Made by a program: the position numbers and the translations under genes
Assembly: GCA_964059195.1 (NCBI GenBank)
Contig: CAXKWD010000009.1
Coordinates: 43,743,160-43,807,159, forward strand
From: Ectobius pallidus
Taxonomy: Eukaryota > Arthropoda > Insecta > Blattodea > Ectobiidae
Reading direction: 5' to 3'
Length of the DNA stretch: 64,000 nucleotides
The notes under the pieces: model-generated
The model's database searches: none
What the model saw: the letters and a program-made list of their open reading frames with translations, nothing else
Told to the model about the DNA's origin: nothing
In this document: positions 19,354 through 63,623 of the stretch, one piece after another
Numbering within the stretch: the first letter of the stretch is position 1
Layout of the letters: each line of letters begins with the position of its first letter

Positions 19354-19719
19354 TACGATACGATTTGATACGACTTCACTTTTATCGTTTAGCTTCTATG
19401 AGCCTCCAGGATGGTCTACACAGACCTTTAAGTTACGTCCGCCATTTTGAATGTTTTTTAGGGTAGAAAAATAGGATCGTTTTGGAATATTTCCGTTGAT
19501 TACAAGCTATAAATTATAAGTGTGCCAAATTTCAAGTTTCTGGCTCATCTGAAAATGGGCAGATCAATTATGTCAATGAGTGAGTTAGCCACGCGGCTTT
19601 GTAGTATAATGGTGATTTGCTATATTTAAACCGTTAATAAGGGGCGTTACTCTGGTATCGGTCAGCCGTAGACGTTGTAAGTGAATACACTATGTTTCAT
19701 GAAAATCTGATAAAGCGTA

Positions 19720-20817
19720 GGATAAGGTGGAACAGTTTCGAACATGGTACAATTCTGATTGAACTAAGAATTTGATCTACTTTTGGGTTTCAAATGTTGG
19801 CCAATCTGTTTTTAATTATGTAGAATCCGTACAGATTGATTTGTTGACCTGTATCCGCAAGAATGATGTTTTAGGCTGTCTCATTCGGTCATAAATTAGT
19901 ATTCTTCAATCGAAGGTAAGAAGTCCATGCTTGAAAAATGGCACGTTTTAAAATTGCTTATAATTGCACGTTGTGTTACTGGGATATATTGTAGAGGACC
20001 AATTTTTAACTCATACCAAAAATAGCCTAGTCTTTAATGCGTAAGTCATTGGCACAACAAGCGTCATTCATGAGCGGAATTTGTAACTATTACAAAAACT
20101 AGCGCAAAGTACAAATACGAATACATTTTAGGAACAATTTTGAACAGTACTTATCCCGCGATCGCTCACTTGTCTTTCATGGAAAAGCTGTTTTGCCATC
20201 ATAGCCATCATAGCATTATTATTATTAACAGTGCTAGTCAAATAAAGGATGGCATTCATACGTCATGATCGACCACCTGCGTGGTCTAGTGGTTGCTGAC
20301 TACGGACCCTCCCCTACGGTATCTCCTCGGATTTTTCTGAGGTAGGGCGATCTGGAACGGGGTGCATTCAGCCAACTGAGGACCTAATTCATAAAGAAAT
20401 AGCGACTCCGGTTCAGTAAGCCATCAATAATTGCCGGAGGATTCGGCATGCTGTCCACATGCCCCAATCCTGTCTTCTCCCTTTTCACTTCATTATTACG
20501 CTTATATTATTGGTAAATAATAATGAATAAAATATTGTTTGGAAGAAAGCAGTTCGTTCCTTGAAAATGCCACTGTTCGAAACAGAACCCACTGGTGTTT
20601 AGAATTGTACCTACTGCGGTACATTTTCGAACGATATTCTAGAAATGAAAGATTGATTGCCAGGACCAATTTTACAGCTGTTTGACTTTCATATTTTTGT
20701 GAAAGGTCAACTACGTTTCCAACTTTGTGATTACAATAAAATTGAATTTGTCTTAGATTTATTGTGTTAAGAAAATAAGAATATTTGTTAAGTGTTCGAA
20801 AATGTACCAGCTTACCC
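19720..20817. mobile_element. TA-flanked MITE with 24-bp terminal inverted repeats
   Basis: Left end GGATAAGGTGGAACAGTTTC, right end (reverse complement) GGGTAAGCTGGTACATTTTC. The 24-bp repeats match at 20 of 24 positions and are flanked by TA on both sides (19718-19719 and 20818-20819). The interrupted family X repeat gives the empty site. Additional subterminal copies of GTACATTTTCGAAC lie near 20620. No transposase frame; it carries a SINE at 20272-20500. TA targeting points to the Tc1/mariner/pogo group. Confidence 0.78.
20272..20500 (+). mobile_element. tRNA-derived SINE-like element nested in the MITE
   Basis: The head GACCACCTGCGTGGTCTAGT plus GGTTGCTGACTACGGA resembles a tRNA A-box region. 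The B box is weak (candidate GGTGCATTCAGCC region). The body continues to about 20490. A SINE origin is likely but the second promoter box is degenerate. Confidence 0.55.
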
Positions 20818-21336
20818 TATTGTATTTTAGTTATTGAACGTACAGACACACGGAAGGACGAACCGACAGACATTTTTCCCGTCCATCATACAATCTTAGA
20901 AATACGATTTTGGCACATAAATAGATTTCAGTATTTTAGATATAATATTTAAAACATATAATAAGCATGGCTTCTAAAATTTATTATTTGTAGGAAAATT
21001 TTCTTCTAATAGGCTATAGGAGTACCGGTACTAATATTCCTTAGAATATTAATTGTAGTACCCATGTTTATGAAGCTATTTTTCGGGTTTTCATTATCAT
21101 AACCACTCTAAAAGTCCTGAATGCTTCTTATTGGCTCATAAATTGCTGACATTGAACATAAAACAAGTGCTCGTACCGCGGAAGATATTAATCTTCGGAC
21201 CCATGATTATATTTTTTCGAGTTTTTGCTTGCTTACATGTAAAAAGTTATTCAATGCTCTTTATTTACCTACGACCTCATTGAGAATATGATATTGATGA
21301 ACAATCGTGGAATGTATTAATTTCAAAAACCCATTT

Positions 21337-23362: not shown

Positions 23363-24282
23363 GCACTTGTGCTTGTTGAAACTTTTATCGCACGGAGATT
23401 TCTTTTGTTTTCATAGCAACCAGATTATTGCGCGCGGGAATGTCAAGTTACGATCCATGGCAACAAATTCGTAAGTACCACTAATTAGTTACGTCTTCCA
23501 AGGGTTACTGCAATGGAACTAGGAAGATATTCTAGTTACTCAGCTTTCAAAACGTGTTCTAATGCTGAGTGTAAATAGAATGTTTTGTTTAAGTAGGGGC
23601 CACCTTGCTAGTTGATTAGTTAACACGATTGCTGTTCCGCCATAGACAGGATATAGTATATAAATATTCATTCTCGAGATTGATTTACTGGTATAGGCCT
23701 ACTGCAAAAACCACGTCTTAAGAATGATGTAATAGGTAACTGTCTATTAACGATAAACTCTACTCTATAAAAGTATAAAGTACTTTGACCTGACTAAAGA
23801 ACAATTATAAACACTTACTTGGCCAAAGTGTAATTTTTTACTTTCTCTGCCCGCACCATAAGTACAATAGATAGAGGAAGCATTGATAAACTTCATTATG
23901 AAGTGTAATAATTTTCAACTAGTACACGTTGTAATAATTTGAGAGTTGAGTTTCTACCTATGTACTAGAGTAAACACAGAACAACTCTGAACCTGAAGCG
24001 GAGCAGCCAGAATCACGTGACGAGTGATAAGCGAATGAGGTTGTTGCGGTGTTGTACAGTTGACGGACCGCGCTGCCTCACTAAAGATATGTACTTCACT
24101 TATTCCTTTGCGCGCTCAAGATCTATTACATATAGGTCTTTTCTGAAATCACCACTGGAAAGCTGTATTTATTTGGAAGCCGACTGTCCAAATCCCATAT
24201 CTCTACGACGCTCCGTTGAGGAGAAAACGCCCTATTTAAAAACAATTAAATACCTTAAAACAATGCTTGCTTGTTCCTCTTA
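23363..24282. other. No gene recognised; left flank of the Harbinger pair
   Basis: Contains TAGGCCTA at about 23696. Near 24214-24234 the phrase GAGGAGAAAACGCCCTATT resembles a decayed right end of the Harbinger-type element that starts at 24283. The frame at 24017-24283 has no recognisable motif. Confidence 0.4.
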
Positions 24283-24876
24283 GAGCCGTTTTCTCCAAAT
24301 CCGATTGAACTTGGTATAAGTCAAACCCGTTCAATTTGGGTATTGGGTTTAAACAGACTTTCATTTTCTCCAAACAATTTTGGCGGACGTTCAGTTTTAA
24401 CGAAATGCTCGCGGGTTCAAACGATCTAAGAGGAGTTGGACCATCTTGACAGTTTACAGGCATTGGATCTTGAGTGTATCTGGCCAATCAGGGACCAAGG
24501 ACACCGATGTTGTGTTTACTTATTTCAATATGTCTGCCGTTTGTGAAGAAGGAGATTGTGTTTTTATTTTGTTAAAGAGAACTGTGTGTGTTAAATGTGC
24601 TCCCTAGTGAAAATTGTAGTGTAATTATTGCGTAATAATAATAAATTATAATTTAAACATCTGAAGTGTTGTGTAGAGTAATTTCTTCAGTTGTTTTCTT
24701 GAATTCTTCTGGGAAGCTTTCTACTTTCGTTATGTTTTCCGAACAGCTTCCTTCTGATTTGTCGCGAATCCAAATTAAATTGAAATTAAATCGTATATAA
24801 GGTACCGGGTCTTGTAATGTTTACATTATGTCAAATATAGGCTACTATTTAATATGTTTCTATATATGTTTTAATA

Positions 24877-26403
24877 CAGGGTGTCCACGCTAGAGGGATC
24901 GAGAAGTAAATGCTCGCCAGTTAAAACGAGATAAGGATATTGCTGCATTCTGCATATGACAGGAAAGGGAAACTCTCCGAGATTGTGCAACAATGTTTTC
25001 AGACCCCTCCACGCGCATGCGCGTCAAGAGCTTTCGTCTATCAATATCGTCTATCAATAAGTGATAATGTCTAATGAACAGAATGTATTGGTAACATAAA
25101 CTTGTACTGTTACTTGATACAAACTGACCGAGTTTCAGATGATGTTCAATACAACTCGATATGTGCACCTTTTGTGGCTCTGCACACATCTAAACGGTAT
25201 TCAACTTCCCGCCAAGTGTTCTCTAGCATTTGTGGAGTCACAAGCGCTACTGCATTTGTGATGCGGCCCCTCAGTTCCTGCAAATTTCTTGGTCTGTCTC
25301 CTTGATAAACAACGTCCTTAACATATCCCCAGAAAAAAAATCCAAAGGGGTCAAATCGGGTGACCTGGGTGGCCAGGCAAGGGGTCCTCCTCTTCCGATC
25401 CACATATCGGGGAAACGTTCATCCAAGAAGTTACGCACATGTCGATGATAATGGGCCGGTGCTCCATCTTGCTGGAAAATCGATCCTGGGGGAAATTGGT
25501 CTATGGCGAAGTTCTGGAACATGTCAAGATACACATGTCCTGTGACTGTAGCCTCTAAGAAGAAGAATGGTCCAATGACAGAGTTCCTCGTCAGTCCACA
25601 CCAGACATTCACTTTAGGCGTGTCTCTCTCAAGTTCTTGAATAACATGGGGAGTCTCTGAACCCCATATCCGGCAGTTGTGCCTATTGATTTTGCCGCAT
25701 AAATGAAAGGTTGCTTCATCCGAGAAAACAATCTTGTCCAGATACGTGTTGTCATTTTCAATTCGAAGCAGCATTTCAGCTGCAAAATCTGCCCTAAGCT
25801 GACGATCATTTGGCTTTATGTGGTGATGAAGCTCGATCTTGTAGGCAGTCAAATGGAGTCGCTTGTGTAAGATCTTGTGAATCGTTGATCTCGGAATTTG
25901 AAGTTCGGAACTAGCTCTTCGGATAGACTTCCTTGGACTCCTTGCAAATGCCGTTCTCACACGTTCGATATTTACCTCATTCAGAGACACTTTTGCATGT
26001 TTGCCGGTTTGCGGTAGTAAAGAACCTGTTTCTCGGAGTGTTCTGTCCCATTGGAGAATCGCTTTATGACCAGGTGGATCCACATTCCACGTACGACGAA
26101 CACGGCGTTGCACCCGAGTAACCGATTTCTCTTCTGCTAGCCATAACACGCACTGAACTTTCTGTTGTGGTGTCCACATGTTTTCCACTGCGCGATCGAC
26201 TACTGAATGGCGCCTGGCTTTCTTTCAAGACGAAAGCTCTTGACGCGCATGCGCGTGGAGGGGTCTGAAAACATTGTTGCACACATTGTTGCACAATCTC
26301 GGAGAGTTTCCCTTTCCTATCATATGCAGAATGCAGCAATATCCTTATCTCGTTTTAACTGGCGAGCATTTACTTCTCGATCCCTCTAGCGTGGACACAC
26401 TGT
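24877..26403. mobile_element. Tc1/mariner-superfamily transposon (DD41D type), nearly intact
   Basis: 1527 bp with long terminal inverted repeats (24877-25039 and 26230-26403, starting CAGGGTGTCC / ACAGTGTGTCC). TA lies on both sides (24875-24876, 26404-26405). The homologous position in Harbinger copy B (about 31011-31020) has a single TA, an actual empty site. The right repeat has an 11-13-bp internal duplication (ACATTGTTGCAC). It carries one transposase gene on the minus strand. Confidence 0.93.
25146..26188 (-). pseudogene. Tc1-like transposase with one frameshift
   Basis: Cut-and-paste transposase acting on the surrounding inverted repeats. Start Met at 26188 (MENMWTPQQKVQCVLWLAEE). 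N-terminal helix-turn-helix of DUF4817 type (residues about 5-55), a second one (SIRRASSELQIPRSTIHKIL, about 85-110), then the DDE_3 catalytic domain: FSDEATFHL, FQQDGAPAHY and SPDLTPLDFF. Forty-one residues separate the second and third Asp, hence a DD41D class rather than Tc1 (DD34E) or mariner (DD34D). The frame breaks in a run of eight T (plus-strand A8 at 25333-25340), immediately after the third Asp block. The last 60-odd residues continue in the next frame to a stop at 25146 (DVVYQGDRPRNLQELRGRI visible). Joined, it would be about 347 residues. No other damage is visible, so the copy is young, or the missing base is a sequencing error. Confidence 0.92.
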
Positions 26404-28364
26404 TATAACAATGTTTGGGGAAAAAGGTATTTTATGCCGCGCACGAGTTTTCCACTCCCACTTATATAATATTGTTTAATATGATTTTTGGTGCAAGGGT
26501 TTTTTTTATTATGAAATATTATTTTGTTGTTTATAGTTGTGACATATTATGTTTGGTGCAAGGGACTTATTATTCAGTGGAAGGAAAAACTGTGCGCGGC
26601 ATGAAGTACCGTTTCGCCGAAATTTCTCGAATCTGTTCCTCCCTGAAAGTCTTACCGTGGATTTCAAGAAAACAACATTTAAATTGAATCTATTCGTTTT
26701 ACCTACAAAATAAAAACCTGTTTACCCTGGAATGATATTGATTTGGATTATACTAAATTTACTGATGGGGTGCCACTGATGGATTAGCCTACTTTGATTC
26801 TAGCAGCAGCTACCCTATTTATTGTTAGGTGTAATGGTATCTATAGCCTATGTCACCAAAAATTGTCAAACGAGATTTTGATAAAATTGAAGGTACCGGT
26901 AGGCCTATAGCCTAATCGGAACCTTAAAGGTCACATATTTAGAGGCAGCATGATTGTCCAGGTAGGATTTTAATTTATAATTCTATTTCCTCTATAATTC
27001 ATTTTAAAGTACCAGTGTTGGCACTGATATTGACGAGAGCTTGTGAATAAAATTAGCATTTTGTATTTTGCAAGTTGTGCCAATTCAAATTATTAGAATT
27101 AATTTAAAGGAAGGAATTGGCACATTTTATTTGTGGATGCTCTGATTACATATACCCGGTAGTGGTGGTAGTAGGCCTAGTGTTAATATGCCAATTTCCA
27201 ATTGAAATGAAAGTAACACTCCTTCCAGCTGGACCATCACCACCATGAAAGCCTGATGTATTATGGACACATCTCACAGATGTAATATGTAGGCCTAATG
27301 CTCAATGTTATGGCATCGAGTTGAGTCATTGGTCAGTGACTGGTCTTTTGTTTGGTTGTAGAGGCACTTTACCGAAATTCACATGGAATTATCTTCTCTC
27401 CTTAGGAATATCCATGGAACTTGTGCGTACTATACTTGTGGGGTTAATAGAGGACTCGCTTTGTATCCTACACAGGCACCTGTATTCCACTTAAATAGTA
27501 GGTTATTAATACTCCTCCAGCTGAGTTAAGCCGCTTAAATCAGTAAATCCTAATCGTATACTTATGTTATTTACTCGTATATTGTTAATATTGTAATACT
27601 GAGGCATACAGTACCCGTATTCAGGAACCCTGTGGTCAGTCATGAAATGAACTGATGTCATTTTGGATAACTAATAAAAATAAAAAACTCTGACACCGAC
27701 CTGGAAGATTTATATGATAGACAAGTATTTCCAATAAACAACAAGATGTCAAGCAGGTGATGTTATTTCCTTACGGTATTTCAATATATTTACTGAAATT
27801 ATTTTATTATACTTTCCATTGGGGCATAGCCTATAATTAATATGGCTTAATTTTTTGACAAGGGATTCTGTTTAAAAATTTTTAACTATACCCATTCCCA
27901 TCCCTTCGTCAAATTTGGTACATAATTTGACATTAGTATATAGCCTAATCTATTTCCTAGAATTTATTGAACATTTTTGAAGATGCAATTTTTTTACATT
28001 AAAAATTTTCACTTTGAAATTTGAAAAAACAAGTTTCATTAGAACTATTAGGCCTATGTGTTATAGTTGTATTTCAGATAAAGTTAGTATTTCTCTTAAT
28101 ATACATGAAAACTACCTCTCTACAAATTTTCATCCCAATCTGGGATGGTGAGGTTAAATTTTAATCAAAAGTGTTTTAATTTGACACAGAATGACCCTTT
28201 TAGAAGGTGTGAGTATAGTAACTAAAAATTCCTTGATTCCTACGTCTTTTGAAAGATTTAGGCTATGCCTTCAATCATTTGTTTTGAATACCTAATAATT
28301 TAATGTTGTTTGGAAGCTTATTGTACCCTATACAGTATCTGTATTGCAGAGTACCCTTCTGGAA

Positions 28365-28958
28365 TGCCGTCACGGTGGCTCATGCTTAGCGCGTGGGCCT
28401 GGCGTGCTAGCGGTCCCGAGTTCAAATCTCGGGGCTGGCGGGCGTGTCATTTGTGGTGGACAAAGCCGTGACCTTTGGGGGTTTTTCTCGGGGATCCTCC
28501 CGTTTCCCCCTTCATTCATTCCACCAACACTCTCCACTTCAGCTTCCTTTCCCCCCTCATTATCATCCCGTTCCCCTTTACTGGTTTTCGGGCCAGCTCC
28601 TGCTGCAGACTCTGCTGCGGGCCTCCCCCGTCCTGCCCCGCTGCTTGTGGTCAAGAGTTGCTGGTGGTGTACCGTGCCTTTGGGGCTCTCAGAGGGACCC
28701 TGGGTTAGTGGCGCATGTCTGGTTGTGCCGCGCCTATGGGGCTCTTGTACGAGGGACCCTGGGTACGGTGCACGTGGAGTGGTACCAGGTCCTTGTTGGA
28801 TGTAGGGGAGCTCCGTGGGGGCTTGTGGTGGAGTCTGTTGACTGGGGGGCCTTAGGGCATGCACATCATTCGTTTCCTAGGGGGTGTACAATGGGCCCGC
28901 CTATGTGGCCTCCGTACGCGAGCCCGTCAGGGCTCAGCCCCTGAACTATACCTATACC
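28365..28958 (+). mobile_element. GC-rich tRNA-headed SINE in Harbinger copy A
   Basis: Head CACGGTGGCTCATGCTTAGC with an A box (GCTTAGCGCGTGGGC) and a B box (GAGTTCAAATCTCGG). A GC-rich body of about 450 bp follows, and the tail is CTATACCTATACC, not poly(A). The 13-bp duplication TACCCTTCTGGAA flanks it (28352-28364 and 28959-28971) and occurs once at 32566-32578 in Harbinger copy B, the empty site. Several long frames inside, on both strands, are GC-content artefacts. Confidence 0.9.
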
Positions 28959-29983
28959 TACCCTTCTGGAAGAGTTACAGTGAAATATCTGGTCTAGGCT
29001 ATGTAAATCGTTCATGCTTCTGGTTGTTTGTCCATGAACACTGTAATTAGTTTTTAATCTGACATTTATTTATATTATCTCTTTCATATAACAGATTATA
29101 TATACCCCTGTATATACTTTTAATTTTTCAAAAAGCGGTTTACAAGATTATCTCTTTTTCTTTCTACATTATTCTCATTGCTCCTTTTTGTAATTTAAAT
29201 ATTATTTCCCCCTATGGGAAGAGTTGCCCCAGAATTTGACTCAATACTTCATCACAGAGTAAAACATGAAAAATATACCATACATAAGGCATCCTCTTGT
29301 AATATAGGCTATTCAAACCTTAAAGCAAAGTATGCTGAACTAAGCTTTGAAATTATTTCATTGTGTGTCTTCCAGCCTAGATTTTGGTCAATTTGCAATC
29401 CTAAAAACTTTATAAATCTAATTTCTTCTATGTCTTGTGTTTGGTAATTATTTAATTAATTATAAGACCCTCTGTAGCTACTCGGTGATAAATATCAACA
29501 ATTCTTCCATCCTGTGAGATCACATACCGTTATGTAATTTCTCATGGCATTAAGTTAAAAAAATTTCAACAGTACTACTGTAACACAAGGGTAATTAAAT
29601 GTAAAATAATTAATATTTTATCAAGTTAGTAGAGCTATTTTAGGTACCAGTTTTGTCAATGAAATTAATTACATTGTGAATATTTAGGAGAATTAGGCCT
29701 ACAAATGATACCTAGGTAAGGAAACTGGTTGTAGTGGTTTTATTTGGGTTTATTGTTTTTTAAGTTGTACTAGATTGGGGGTTTATACAGTAATAGTTGT
29801 TGGTTGGTCATCAAATTTTAATTATTCTATATTGGGGGTTTGCAAGCTCTAGCTCAAACTATTTCTTATGGGAATCCTCAGTTTGACATTCACAGTAATT
29901 TTTTTTTTTTACATCCATTTGGCTGGAGCAGTTATATTTGCCGTATATCCTATTTGTGAATTATGAAGAAGTTGTTCCCAATT

Positions 29984-30154
29984 TTAATAGTGATCTACCC
30001 TTGTAGGCTTACTGGTCTTGGTCGCCCTAACCTCATTTACGTCCATTGGGGTATAATCATCATCTATCTCATCAAAGATTTCAACACATCTATCATTCTG
30101 TTTCACCACTTGTGATTTCCAATTGTAAAATTTTAATTGAACAGTAATAGAAGG
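29984..30154 (-). pseudogene. Possible decayed exon of a Harbinger-encoded protein (copy A)
   Basis: A 56-codon open segment without start Met, ending in TAA, reading QLKFYNWKSQVVKQNDR then CVEIFDEIDDDYTPMDVNEV and more. The homologous segment in copy B (33587-33763) is also open, with several amino-acid changes and a 6-bp in-frame length difference. Acidic and Trp-containing; Harbinger elements usually encode a Myb/SANT-like protein next to the transposase, but I cannot show this is one. Confidence 0.35.
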
Positions 30155-30406
30155 TTAATTTCAATATAATTGCTATAAAAATTGCTAATATTATGAGATA
30201 ATGTCAAGGAATTTCCAACAAAATATCTATTTAAACCACAGAACAGCAGTTTAAACCCTCAACATTGAGGGTTTAGCTAGATCCCATGTTTAAACTCGAT
30301 GCAAGGTTTAAACTAGTGTGGGGAAAATCATTTTTACTTTAAACTCAGGATTAAACAAGTTTGAAGTAAATCCAGGTTTAAACTGACTTGGAGAAAACGG
30401 CCCTTA

Positions 30407-33400
30407 GAGCCGTTTTCTCCAAATCCGATTGAACTTGGGAGAAGTCAAACCCGTTCAATTTGGGTATTGGGTTTAAACAGACTTTCATTTTCTCCAAACA
30501 ATTTTGGCGGACGTTCTGTTTAAACGAAATGCTCGCGGGTTCAAACGATCTAAGAGGAGTTGGACCATCTTGACAGTTTACCGGCTTTGGAACTTGAGTG
30601 TAACTGGCCAATCAGGGACCAAGGACACCGATGTTGTGGTTACTTATTTCCAATATGTCTGCCGTTTGTGAAGAAGGAGATTGTGTTTTTATTTTGTTAA
30701 AGAGAACTGTGTGTGTAAAATGTGCTCCCTAGTGAAAATTGTAGTGTAATTATAGCGTAATAATAATAAATCATAATTTAAACATCTGAAGTGTTGTGTA
30801 GAGTAATTTCTTCAGTTGTTTTCTTGAAATATTTTGGGAAGCTTTCTACTTTCGTTATTATGTCTTCCGAACAGCTTCTGATTTGTCGCGAATCCATATT
30901 AAATTGAAATTAAATCGTATATAAGGTACCGGGGCTTGTAATGTTTACATTATGTCAAATATACTATTTAATATGTTTCTATATAACAGCCTATAATATG
31001 CCAAATGTTTTAATATAACAATGTTTGGGGAAAAGGTATTTTATGCCGCGCACGAGTTATCCACTCCCACTTATATAATATTGTTTAATATGATTTTTGG
31101 TGCAAGGGTCTTTTTTTATTATGAAATATTATTTTGTTGTTTATAGTTGTGATATATTATGTTTGGTGCAAGGGACTTATTATTCAGTGGAAGGAAAAAT
31201 TGTGCGCGGCATGAAGTACCGTTTCGCCGAAATTTCTCGAATCTGTTCCTCCCTGAAAGTCTTACCGTGGATTTCAAGAAAACAACATTTAAATTGAATC
31301 TATTCATTTTACCTACAAAATAAAAACCTGTTTACCCTGGAATGATATTGATTTGGATTATACGAAAGGGGAGCAGGGTGAGTCGGAAAGTATAAACTTG
31401 CCTTTTGAAGTACCAGTGTTGGCACTGATATTGACGAGAGCTTGTGAATAAAATTAGCATTTTGTATTTTGCAAGTTGTGCCAATTCAAATTATTAGAAT
31501 TAATTTAAAGGAAGGAATTGGCACATTTTATTTGTGGATGCTCTGATTACATATAGTGGTGGTAGTAGGCCTAGTGTTAACATGCCAATTTCCAATTGAA
31601 ATGAAATTAACACTCTTCCAGCTGGACCATCACCACCATGAAAGCCTGATGTATTATGGACACCTCTCACAGATGTAATATGTAACGCTCAATGTTATGG
31701 TATCGAGTTGAGTCATCGGTCAGTGACTGGTCTTTTGTTTGGTTGTAGAGGCACTTTACCGAAATTCACATGGAATTATCTTCTCTCCTTAGGAATATCC
31801 ATGGAACTTGTGCGTACTATACTTGTGGGGTTAATAAAGGACTCGCTTTGTATCCTACACAGGCACCTGTATTCCACTTAAATAGTAGGTTATTAATACT
31901 CCTCCAGCTGAGTTAAGCCAATTAAATCAGTAAATCCTAATTGTATACTTATGTTATTTACTCATATATTGTTAATATAGTAATACTGAGGCATACAGTA
32001 CCCGTATTCAGGAACCCTGTGGTCAGTCATGAAATGAATTGATGCCATTTTGGATAAATAATAAAAATTAAAAACTCTGACACCGACCTGGAAGATTTAT
32101 ATGATAGACAAGTATTTCCAATAAACAACAAGATGTCAAGCAGGTGATGTTATTTCCCTTACGGTATTTAAATTTATTTACTGAAATTATTTTATTATAC
32201 TTTCCATTGGGGCATATAATTAATATGGCTTGATTTTTTTTGACAAGGGATTCTGTTTAAAAAATGTTAACTATGAAACCATTCCCATACCTTCTTCAAA
32301 TTTGGTACATAATTTGACAGTATATAGCCTAATCCATTTCCTAGAATTTATTGAACATTTTTGAAGACGCAATTTATTTTTAAATTCAAAATTTTCACTT
32401 TGAAATTTGAAAAAAAAACAAGTTTCATTAGAACTATTAGGCCTATGTGTTATACCCTAGTTGTATTTCAGTAAAAGTTAGTATTTCTCTTAATATACAT
32501 GAAAACTACCTCTCTACAAATTTTCGAGGTTAAATTTTAATCAAAAGTGTGGTAGTAAGTAGGCCTACCCTTCTGGAAGAGTTACAGTGAAATAACTGGT
32601 CTATGTAAATCGTTCATGCTTCTGGTTGTTTGTCCATGAACACTGTAATTAGTTTTTAATCTGACATTTATTGATATTATCTCTATCATATAACAGATTA
32701 TATATATACCCCTGTAACTTATATACTTTTAAATTTTCAAAAAGCGGTTTACAAGATTCTCTTTTTTTCTTTCTACATTATTCTCATTGCTCCTTTTTGT
32801 AATTTAAATATTATTTCCCCCTATGGGAAGAGTTGCCCCAGATTATGACTCAATACTTCATCACAGAGTAAAACATGAAAAATATACCATACATAAGGCA
32901 TCTTGTAATATAGGATATTCAAACCTTAAAGCAAAGTATGCTGAACTAAGCTTTGAAATTATTTCATTGTGTCTCTTCCAGCCTAGATTTTGGTCAATTT
33001 GCAATCCTAAAAACTTTATAAATCCAATTTCTTCTATGTCTTGTGTTTGGTAATTATTTAATTAATTATAAGACCCTCTGTAGCTACTCGGTGATAAATA
33101 TCAACAATTCTTCCATTCTGTGAGACCACATAAGTTACCGGTAGGCCTATGTAATTTCTCATTGCATTAAGTCCAAAATTTAAGTAACAGTACTACTGTA
33201 ACACAAGGGTAATTAAATGTAAAATCATTAATATTTTATCAAGTTAGTAGAGCTATTTTAGGTACCAGTTTTGTCAGTGAAATTGTGAATATTTAGGAGA
33301 ATTAGGCCTACAAATGATACCTAGGTAAGGAAACTGGTTGTAGTGGTTTTATTTGGGTTTATTGTTTTTTAAGTTGTACTAGATTGGGGTTTATACAGTA

Positions 33401-34012
33401 ATAATTGTTGGTCATCAAATTCTAATTATTCTATATTGGGGGTTTGCAAGCTCTAGCCCAAATTATTTCTTATGGGAATCCTCAGTTTGACATTCACAGT
33501 AATTTTTTTTTTTACATCCATTTGGCTGGAGCAGTTATATTTGCTGTATAACCTAATTGTGAATTATGAAGAAGCTGTTCCCAATTTTAATAGTGATCTG
33601 CCCTTGTAGGCTTACTGTTCTTGGTCTTGGTTGCCCTAACCTCATTTAGGTCCATTGGGGTATAATCATCATCTATCTCATCAAAGATTTCAACATATCT
33701 ATCATTCTGTTTCACCACTTGTGATTTCCAATTGTAAAATTTGAATTGAACAGTAATAGAAGGTTAATTTAAATATAATTGCTATAAAAATTGCTAATAT
33801 TATGAGATATTGTCAAGGAATTTCCAACAAAATATCTATTTAAACCACAGAGCAGCAGTTTAAACCCTCAACATTGAGGGTTTAGCTAGATCCCATGTTT
33901 AAACTTGATGCAAGGCTTAAACTAGTGTGGGGAAAATCATTTTTACTTTAAACTCAGGATTAAACAAGTTTGAAGTAAATCCAGGTTTAAACTGACTTGG
34001 AGAAAACGGCCC
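30407..34012. mobile_element. Harbinger-type DNA element, copy B (non-autonomous)
   Basis: 3606 bp with the same ends as copy A, TTA on both sides (30404-30406 shared with A, and 34013-34015). Same orientation as A. It lacks the Tc1-like transposon and the SINE. It has a few extra short stretches, for example about 20 bp near 30985-31005 and TACCCTA at about 32453. No transposase frame. Confidence 0.8.
33587..33763 (-). pseudogene. Possible decayed exon of a Harbinger-encoded protein (copy B)
   Basis: 58 codons homologous to 29984-30154: YVEIFDEIDDDYTPMDLNEV then RATKTKNSKPTRADHY and stop. Frame kept in spite of a 6-bp difference. See the copy A entry for the limits. Confidence 0.35.
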
Positions 34013-34015
34013 TTA

Positions 34016-34617
34016 GTGAGTAGGCATGCATCTCCCTTCTCTATCTGTTAGACAGAGACAGCTGCACAGTGCTGAATAGTCAACGCCGCACGTTGCGTAA
34101 CATTCTATTGGCTTATCATATGTTCAGAGTTGATTTGTGTTTAGTATAGTAATTTATAAGACTGACAACGATGTTGTGTATTGAATACGAACAAACAAGG
34201 ATTACAATGCTATAGGTTATTTATATTAGTAATGTTATACTATAAAGGCAAACATACAAACATTCACCTAATAATACTTCTGTTTATGTAAAGATAAAAT
34301 GTTATTGTGCATTCACAGTGCTGTGACCTTGTTGCCTTATTTTCTAGCGTCAAATTATATTGTTTACAAATTGCAAAAATGAGTTTAAAAATTTGTGACA
34401 ATCAGCTTGAAGATATGTAAGCAAATATACAAGTAAAAATGCGTGAGTACATAACGTATTCATAACGTATTATGTTTTCATGTTTTCATAACGTATTATA
34501 ACTATGTTTTTGTCAACAGCCCTTTCATTAAAATCTCAAGTAACACAAATAATGTCTATCACTTATTTAAAAAAAAACTTTTGTGTGTCTCTGCAGCTCT
34601 CATTATTGAGTTTATCA
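34016..34617. other. No gene recognised; right flank of the Harbinger pair
   Basis: AT-rich. About 34060-34150 shows weak inverted similarity to the left flank at 23966-24090 (CAACTCTGAAC, TGATAAGC, GTTGAC, CACTAA in matching order). Confidence 0.4.
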
Positions 34618-62561: not shown

Positions 62562-62909
62562 ATACTAATACTACTACTACTTCTACTTCATCACATTAGG
62601 TCAAGGTTTATATTTTAGCTTTTTTGTACTAACAATATTTCTTAAAACTGCTTAGTATTATTTCGTAATTTTCTGTTCAGGCTATGTGAGAGCGGATTGT
62701 ATGCCTAAAAGGAACTCTTTAGTTCTAAGCTTACAGTCCTTAAAATAAAATAAATTAAATTCAGTTTTTTTAACTGTTTATCTCATTTTAGCAGAAATTA
62801 TCATTTTGACGTAAAATCTACCATAATAAGTTATGCCTTGTGAACATGTCCTTCAGTTTAAACTTCTTGCCGAATTTTACCCTTATTACCTGAACCACCG
62901 CCTCTAATA

Positions 62910-63621
62910 CAGTGAGTCCCACGCAAGAGTTGGCCAATGACGCAGGTTTCTGCGTCGCGGCTGGCACAGCTCCATCTCCCGAGCGATCGGGTGAAATATC
63001 TACGCAAATAATGCCGCGGTCGGTGTAATGATTCAGGTTCTCACATTTACATCTAAAATTACAATGAAAATAACCACGTACCTCATCACAAGAGATGTTG
63101 GAAATGTTCTCCTCTTGTATCCACACAATACTGGCACCTTTTTAGGAAATTTTCTTTCACGCGCATAAGTTCAGCTTCCAAGAAATAGTTAATTTATTTT
63201 GTGATGTTGTCTTTAAGTTCTTCTTATGTATGGGAAATTGACCTATACACTTTATTTTTCAAGTTTTCCCATAAATAATATTTACATACTGTTAGAAGAA
63301 CTTGAAGACAATATCACATAGGCCTATCACAAGAGAAATGAACTCTGTCTCGGAGGCTGAACTTATGCGCGTGAAAGAAAATTTCCTAAAAAGGTGCCAA
63401 TATTGTGTGGATGCAAGAGGAAAACATTTTCAACATCTCTTGTGATGAGGTACGTGGCTATTTTCATTGTAATTTTAACTGTAAATGTGAGAATCTGAAT
63501 AATTACACCGACCGCGGCATTATTAGCGTAGATATTTCACCCGATCGCTCGGGAGTTGGAGCTGTGCCAGCCGCGACGCAGAAACCCGCGTCATTGGCCA
63601 ACTCTTGCGTGGGACTCACTG
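62910..63621. mobile_element. 712-bp palindromic TA-flanked MITE
   Basis: The two arms (62910 to about 63225 and about 63297 to 63621) are inverted copies over more than 300 bp, with few mismatches. Ends CAGTGAGTCCCACGCAAGAG and its complement; TA on both sides (62908-62909, 63622-63623). A loop of about 70 bp contains a smaller ATGGGAAA/TTTCCCAT inverted repeat. CAGT ends with TA duplication point to Tc1/mariner mobilisation. Matching open frames in both arms (62818-63126 minus, 63405-63647 plus) reflect the repeat, not two genes. TAGGCCTA occurs in the right arm at about 63319. Confidence 0.88.
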
Positions 63622-63623
63622 TA

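What the first reader, a model, noticed from the sequence alone, without database searches (positions are those of the whole stretch)
24283..34012. TA-flanked 3-5-nt micro-insertions distinguish the two tandem Harbinger copies
Aligning copy A and copy B by eye shows clean small insertions that follow a TA and end in TA. In A: GGCTA after TA at about 24837 (B near 30960 reads AATATACTATT), GGCCTA at about 27293 (B near 31683), GCCTA at about 27827 (B near 32216), CCCGGTA at about 27153 (B near 31554), GGCTA at about 28994 (B near 32602). In B: CCCTA at about 32454 (A near 28064), ACTTA at about 32717 (A near 29111). Each gives TA-N3-5-TA opposite a single TA. That is the expected scar of a TA-duplicating (Tc1/mariner-type) transposon that inserted and later excised, leaving a few terminal bases and the second TA. 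GGC, GCC and GGCC scars fit one family with GGC...GCC ends; CCC fits the MITE type at 19720-20817, whose ends are GGG/CCC.
Basis: partly seen in the sequence, partly recalled or inferred. Interest (0 to 1): 0.85.

Follow-up and report, generated by a model that had tools for sequence, protein, structure and literature searches.

The report
Half a million TA-bounded micro-insertions
A cockroach genome carries hundreds of thousands of tiny TA-flanked inserts such as TAGGCCTA that look like scars left when mobile DNA jumped out, but the element that would have made the commonest kind was not found in the small part that could be read.

Summary
All seven insertions lie at the stated places and are clean TA-N3..5-TA against a single TA. 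Of ten A/B indels of 5-7 nt, seven are clean TA-bounded, two belong to one compound TA-rich difference, one is not; chance gives 3-4%. Between other repeats of the sampled DNA, 11 of 38 indels of 5 nt and 6 of 24 of 6 nt are TA-bounded, against 3/51, 2/45, 1/24 and 1/28 at 3, 4, 7 and 8 nt. The 2.12-Gb cockroach assembly holds 520,230 TAGGCCTA against 14,707 of the reversed word. Forty copies of the same repeat carry TA-bounded inserts at ten sites, nine of them minority states. Cores (GGC, GCC, CAG, ACT, AGT, CCC and the palindromes GGCC, CCGG) are what short overhangs of Tc1/mariner-type elements leave after end joining. TA-flanked elements with CAG and CCG ends were seen. For GGC, the dominant class, none was found in 288 kb; the GGC- and GGG-tipped elements checked are hAT-like with 8-bp duplications. 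So footprints are the best reading, but the main maker is missing, and a non-transposon origin of the GGC class stays open.

The parts
24279..30407 (+). Copy A of the tandem repeat pair
   Evidence: self-BLAST; TTA at both ends and at the A/B junction
30403..34016 (+). Copy B of the tandem repeat pair
   Evidence: self-BLAST; relatives matching nearly all of B in the four 4-kb loci looked at
24838..24844 (.). TA-GGC-TA insertion in A
27153..27161 (.). TA-CCCGG-TA insertion in A, private to A among 40 copies
27290..27297 (.). TA-GGCC-TA insertion in A, shared with 6 other copies of 40 (one with a later point change)
27827..27833 (.). TA-GCC-TA insertion in A, shared with 6 other copies of 40 (one as TCC)
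28995..29001 (.). TA-GGC-TA insertion in A
32453..32459 (.). TA-CCC-TA insertion in B; present (CCC or CCT) in 27 of 40 copies
32715..32721 (.). TA-ACT-TA insertion in B
33131..33149 (.). Chain TA-AGT-TA-CCGG-TA-GGCC-TA in B opposite TACCGTTA in A
26894..26914 (.). Chain TA-CCGG-TA-GGCC-TATA-GCC-TA in a part of A that B lacks
24877..26402 (-). CAGGGTGTCC...GGACACACTG element inserted at a TA of copy A (filled state, empty in B; one extra T on the right); 317-codon stop-to-stop frame 25271-26224 with a weak DDE_3 match (23.3 bits, Pfam cut-off 28.6)
62908..63623 (.). TA-flanked element with perfect 20-nt inverted ends CAGTGAGTCCCACGCAAGAG, a CAG-type MITE
19718..20819 (.).

Best explanation
The insertions are excision footprints of several Tc1/mariner-superfamily elements (Tc1, mariner and pogo/Tigger kinds) that duplicate TA. 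Shown: the inserts are TA-bounded, have mostly 3-4-nt cores, are derived at most sites of the 40-copy set, recur at different TAs in copies of the same repeat, and are inherited by later copies. Inferred: the transposase cuts one strand at the TA and the other three bases inside the element, so each flank keeps a 3-nt 3' overhang. If the two overhangs pair along their full length with a middle mismatch, repair leaves the terminal triplet or its complement (GGC or GCC; CAG or CTG; ACT or AGT; CCG or CGG). If the overhang ends in a self-complementary dinucleotide (GC or CG), a shifted pairing is perfect and leaves a 4-nt palindrome (GGCC, CCGG), which would explain why GGCC is the commonest scar. 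A GGC-ended element, perhaps low in copy number but very mobile, would have made most of them.
For: A/B indels with the null. Independent repeats without A/B, each event counted once: 11/38 and 6/24 TA-bounded at 5 and 6 nt against 3/51, 2/45, 1/24, 1/28, 2/15 and 0/24 at 3, 4, 7, 8, 9 and 10 nt. Forty copies: of 11 distinct indel events of 5-7 nt, counting the TCC variant with its GCC site, 10 are TA-bounded, at ten sites (GGCC five, AGT two, GCC, CCC/CCT, CCCGG), on a tree of about 213 substitutions. Genome count 520,230 against 14,707. GGCC is enriched only with TA on both sides: 186 of 1018 strand-contexts, while TA on the left alone is at background, 76 of 832 against 10% for CCGG (my arithmetic). 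Palindromic 4-mer cores in 264 kb, sites against expectation: GGCC 93/4.3, CCGG 13/2.0, TCGA 8/3.3, GATC 5/3.2; CATG, AGCT, ACGT, GTAC, GCGC, CGCG, TGCA and CTAG near or below; of the AT-only ones TATA, ATAT and TTAA are raised and AATT is not. 3-nt cores raised: GGC/GCC 78 against 32, ACT/AGT 109 against 62, CCA/TGG 66 against 35, CAG/CTG 78 against 53, CCG/CGG 27 against 15.5. TA-flanked elements: CCG ends (L004:401-1065, L025:4325-5738), CAG ends (copy A; L010; L011; L014; window 62908; L070-L072). Transposase domains: first-look candidates DDE_1 1354 and DDE_3 6151, 150 of each scored, many with open frames. Papers, passages only: Tc1/mariner cleavage inside the element gives 3' overhangs and footprints, SB leaves CAG (PMC8151067); footprints 2-4 bp in general, ZB 0-3 (PMC7913693); Passer 0-4 bp (PMC9976928).
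Against: No GGC-ended, TA-flanked element in 288 kb, though GGC-type scars number about 135 above expectation in 264 kb of it; CAG and CCG elements, with far fewer scars, were seen in the same sample. No empty site was seen for the CCG elements. No filled GGC site appeared among chained repeat pairs, although the 40-copy set was picked for full-length matches and would miss filled ones. That a core and its complement both occur is weak evidence, because any insert could land in either orientation. AT-rich triplets are raised too (TTT/AAA 325 against 228, AAT/ATT 219 against 171, TTA/TAA 217 against 177, TAC/GTA 74 against 52, GAA/TTC 84 against 61), so part of the 3-nt excess need not be scars. 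Of the 17 TA-bounded events at 5-6 nt, four (TTA, TTT, TGA, AGAT) fit no donor. At the rate implied by the 40 copies, intact TAGGCCTA should be 12-17 times denser than it is at steady state (my arithmetic), so the process is recent, these copies are favoured targets, or the set is unrepresentative. The overhang length is inferred; a 2-nt overhang GG would also give GGCC.
Confidence: 0.65

Rival explanations
1. The GGC class (GGCC, GGC, GCC) is not transposon scars. A staggered break at TA leaves 3' TA ends; telomerase, whose insect repeat is TTAGG (recalled), adds G or GG to each end, and head-to-head joining gives TAGGCCTA, TAGGCTA or TAGCCTA. Other cores remain transposon scars.
For: TAGGCCTA is exactly a head-to-head TTAGG/CCTAA junction; no GGC donor was found; TAGGTACCTA (GGT+ACC) is 10 of the first 50 TAGGNNCCTA sites listed and 2 sites against about 0.05 in 264 kb; GGTCC 4 against 1.2.
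Against: No graded series at the short end: G+C 112 against 105, GG+0 127 against 142, G+0 626 against 658; all 16 TAGGNNCCTA words together make 22,221 against 520,230 TAGGCCTA. T just before the TA is depleted, 0.15 against 0.34, although TTA should prime best.
Confidence: 0.1
2. A different TA-specific nuclease or integrase puts in GGCC directly (a micro-insertion engine), with no mobile element behind it.
For: Scars vastly outnumber any donor seen; the flank shows an enzyme-like RTAY preference (purine before TA in 75%); the same GGCC insertion occurs at one TA in two copies that are apart on the tree, L037 and L064.
Against: The same genome has TA-bounded inserts of other classes whose likely donors are visible (CAG, CCG), so an ordinary mechanism is at hand; the GGC/GCC/GGCC set is what one 3-nt overhang would leave. 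Exchange between copies could also explain L037 and L064.
Confidence: 0.14
3. Polymerase slippage or tandem duplication in AT-rich DNA.
For: Insertions between TAs can be written as duplications of TA plus filler; about 3-4% of random indels look TA-bounded; AT-rich triplets between TAs are raised too.
Against: Most cores are GC-rich, recur in sequence at unrelated sites, and only lengths 5-6 show the excess.
Confidence: 0.02
4. hAT-type footprints.
For: hAT-like elements with TAGGG or TAGGC tips are present (L009, L014, L018).
Against: They duplicate 8 bp (L014 GTCATTAC, L009 ATAATCAA, L018 CACTTAAT/CCCTTAAT); the scars show TA only.
Confidence: 0.02

Closest known systems
Tc1/mariner excision footprints (Sleeping Beauty CAG, ZB, Passer)
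   Same: TA duplication and a short terminal core left between two TAs
   Different: Here the commonest core is a 4-nt palindrome, GGCC, at genome scale, and the donor for it is unseen
pogo/Tigger and Tc1-type elements of this genome
   Same: TA-flanked, CAG or CCG ends, many open transposase frames
   Different: None of the few whose ends were read carries GGC ends
Stowaway-type MITE footprints in grasses (PMC1925063, search listing only)
   Same: Excision footprints of TA-duplicating MITEs seen by comparing copies (recalled)
   Different: Reported locus by locus; no genome-wide single-word excess that I know of (recalled)

Membership tests
Tc1/mariner-type excision footprint | Insertion lies between a duplicated TA | tested here: met
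   null
Tc1/mariner-type excision footprint | Core of about 2-4 nt | tested here: met
   Excess only at indel lengths 5 and 6, i.e. cores of 3 and 4; CCCGG (5) in copy A is an exception
Tc1/mariner-type excision footprint | Core and its reverse complement both occur | tested here: met
   GGC and GCC, ACT and AGT on the same strand of one repeat; weakly diagnostic, since inserts may land in either orientation
Tc1/mariner-type excision footprint | TA-flanked donor with the same terminal triplet: CAG and CCG classes | tested here: met
   empty site seen only for the CAG element of copy A
Tc1/mariner-type excision footprint | TA-flanked donor with the same terminal triplet: GGC class | tested here: inconclusive
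   None in 288 kb, which leaves up to about 22,000 copies possible at 95% (my arithmetic)
Tc1/mariner-type excision footprint | Empty, filled and scar states at one site | tested here: inconclusive
   Empty and scar at ten sites; empty and filled at one other site (CAG); all three at one site not seen
hAT footprint | 8-bp target duplication | tested here: not met
Telomerase addition | Graded additions along TTAGG | tested here: not met
   the small TAGGTACCTA excess is an exception
PIF/Harbinger (copies A and B) | 3-bp TWA duplication and a Harbinger transposase | not tested
   TTA is seen at the ends; no transposase search of A or B succeeded (one search failed) and no stop-to-stop frame of 120 codons or more lies in B

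The most novel reading that the evidence does not exclude
One process, either a ghost transposon that hardly ever stays put or a TA-specific micro-insertion system that is no transposon at all, has written GGCC/GGC/GCC between duplicated TAs roughly a million times in one insect genome, so that about 18% of the GGCC tetranucleotides of the sampled DNA are such scars.
Probability: 0.3. Interest if true: 0.85.

Novelty: new variant of a known kind. Interest (0 to 1): 0.66.

Why it matters
If these are footprints, cut-and-paste elements are a leading source of 5-6-bp indels in this genome: in the 40-copy set there are about 10-12 scar events per 213 substitutions. Scars would then record the activity of elements that leave few copies, which repeat annotation misses. 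If the GGC class has no donor, it is a new mutational mechanism. The spectrum (GGCC against GGC/GCC) also gives a natural test of how overhangs are rejoined. I saw no report of the TAGGCCTA excess among the listed titles and abstract beginnings of my searches (one search listed 40 of 182 papers, one search listed 10 of 49); subscription papers are mostly not held.

Tried and rejected
GGC donor hunt: inverted-repeat scans at TA (the list was cut, so one search repeated it for GGC and CCG ends with looser ends), repeated words and repeat ends at TAGGC, long insertions in repeat pairs, and transposase families. The GGG family (L009, L014) and the GGC element L018:1111-1696 proved hAT-like. The TAGGCGTAACC element of L018 and L014 also has an 8-bp duplication in L018 (CATGTACT). 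The pogo/Tigger elements read end to end have CAG ends: L070 and L071 of one family, L072 of another. Pieces beside two DDE_3 transposases show 21-bp tandem repeats, not clear ends. The frame in the CAG element of copy A matches solved structures only weakly (Sleeping Beauty, E 0.3). A chain test (scars sharing a TA) gave 13 against 10.3 expected, so no clustering. The 40-copy tree has weakly supported nodes, so the second origin of the insert at site 164 is uncertain; the two origins at site 539 are better placed. The counts list several events twice a few bases apart; one search merges them and its numbers are the ones used. Literature searches for the word itself gave, in what was listed, mainly primers and unrelated sequences, including one primer of the German cockroach paper PMC7650587 (passages).

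Not done because the genome search machine was busy: counts of TACCGGTA, of the CCG element, of the mariner family PF01359, and of a filled-site word in the repeat family.

Full report
What was checked. The window lies at G000:C9:43743160-43807159 of a 2.12-Gb assembly in 410 contigs. A nuclear COX1 copy is 94% identical to cockroach COX1, best to Blaberidae, with other cockroaches at 92-93% among the 120 best listed of 7998, so the animal is a cockroach; the species is not established. Copies A (24279-30407) and B (30403-34016) share four segments with 2.65% mismatch. All seven insertions of the finding are there and clean. Of ten indels of 5-7 nt, seven are these, two form a compound TA-rich difference, one (TGTTCT) is not TA-bounded. 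Random indels of that size look TA-bounded in 3-4%.

Not a local effect. Aligning the repeats of the held DNA with each other gave 937 small indels by place, 863 after merging neighbours of equal length. Without A/B, TA-bounded were 11 of 38 at 5 nt and 6 of 24 at 6 nt, but 3/51, 2/45, 1/24, 1/28, 2/15 and 0/24 at 3, 4, 7, 8, 9 and 10 nt. Cores at 5-6 nt: GGCC four, GGC two, CAG two, and one each of GTC, GAC, GACC, GGT, AGT, TTA, TTT, TGA and AGAT.

Genome scale. In 200 kb of spaced samples TAGGCCTA occurs 65 times, 27 times the second-order expectation; the window has 28 against 0.58 in shuffles; the whole genome has 520,230 against 14,707 for the word read backwards. The reversed word holds a CpG and is only a rough control. 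Only the two-sided form is enriched: GGCC with TA on the left alone is at background. Of the palindromic 4-mers with G or C, GGCC and CCGG exceed expectation clearly, TCGA and GATC weakly.

Derived and recurrent. Forty copies of a 1-kb part of the same repeat (39 places, B among them, plus copy A; 1106 first-look candidates exist, 40 were scored) carry TA-bounded inserts at ten TA sites: GGCC at five (in 15, 7, 1, 2 and 2 copies, one of the 7 with a later point change), AGT at two (5 and 2), GCC in 7 (one as TCC), CCC/CCT in 27, CCCGG in 1. Nine of ten are minority states and five are in one or two copies, so those are most simply insertions; CCC/CCT is a majority state and its polarity is open. 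The substitution tree has about 213 changes, so scars arise about once per 18-21 substitutions here. Site 539 was hit in two copies that lie apart on the tree.

Mechanism. Published work, seen as passages only, says that Tc1/mariner transposases cut the second strand a few bases inside the element and leave 3' overhangs and footprints (PMC8151067), 2-4 bp in general and 0-3 for ZB (PMC7913693), 0-4 bp for Passer (PMC9976928). A 3-nt overhang GGC gives GGC or GCC by full pairing with one mismatch, and GGCC by a shifted, perfect GC/GC pairing; CCG likewise gives CCG, CGG and CCGG. CAG and ACT cannot pair in the shifted way, and the palindromes that 2-nt ends would give (CATG 7 against 6.8; ACGT 1 against 3.8, sites) are not raised. 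This fits without being proof: the overhang length is inferred, and a 2-nt overhang GG would also give GGCC.

Donors. TA-flanked CAG elements are common: copy A 24877-26402 (empty in B, with one extra T on the right), window 62908-63623, L010, L011, L014, and pogo/Tigger elements L070-L072. CCG elements: L004, L025, without an empty site to compare. For GGC nothing was found in 288 kb; that allows up to about 22,000 copies in the genome (my arithmetic), and worn ends would escape the scans. GGC-type scars exceed expectation by about 89 (GGCC) plus 46 (GGC/GCC) sites in 264 kb. With the whole-genome count for GGCC that makes roughly 0.9-1.1 million, hence at least about 40 scars per possible donor. 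For CCG the figures are about 22 excess scars per 264 kb and two elements in 288 kb. This imbalance is the real puzzle.

Alternatives. Insect telomeres are TTAGG (recalled), and TAGGCCTA is a head-to-head junction of that repeat. Telomerase adding GG at both ends of a TA break would mimic GGCC, GGC and GCC. But G+C, GG and G alone are not raised, all TAGGNNCCTA words together are 22,221, and T before TA is depleted. TAGGTACCTA is over-frequent in a small way (10 of the first 50 listed) and unexplained. hAT scars do not fit the 40-copy alignment and slippage does not fit the GC-rich cores and the length peak, though AT-rich triplets between TAs are raised as well.

Footprints: likely. One GGC...GCC family: inferred, not found. 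CCC from the MITE at 19720-20817: not supported.

Verdict. A real, strong, genome-wide pattern; most likely footprints of known kinds of element, with an unseen dominant donor and a palindromic scar that overhang pairing would explain.

Noticed in passing
window 30400-30410: Copies A and B stand head to tail and share one TTA at the junction, as if the second element had inserted at the edge of the first or one had been duplicated.
   Followed up: partly
G000, 94 matches to COX1: Many nuclear copies of mitochondrial COX1, several nearly full length, four matches lying within about 53 kb of C5.
   Followed up: no
G000, DDE_1 and DDE_3 matches: Groups of pogo/Tigger and Tc1-type transposases with equal scores and open frames of 360-540 codons, a sign of recent spread.
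   Followed up: partly
L073, L075, L076: Pieces beside two DDE_3 transposases hold arrays of a 21-bp repeat, in inverted orientation on the two sides of one of them.
   Followed up: no
L009:542-1561, L014:3509-4357, L018:1111-1696: hAT-like elements whose tips begin TAGGG or TAGGC and could be mistaken for TA-duplicating elements; their duplications are 8 bp.
   Followed up: yes
genome-wide: TAGGTACCTA is 10 of the first 50 TAGGNNCCTA sites listed and TAGGCACCTA/TAGGTGCCTA are 26 of 50; the latter may be a repeat family.
   Followed up: no
window 20818-20824: Right of the MITE at 19718-20819 the sequence reads TATTGTA, which may be a further TA-TTG-TA scar beside it.
   Followed up: no
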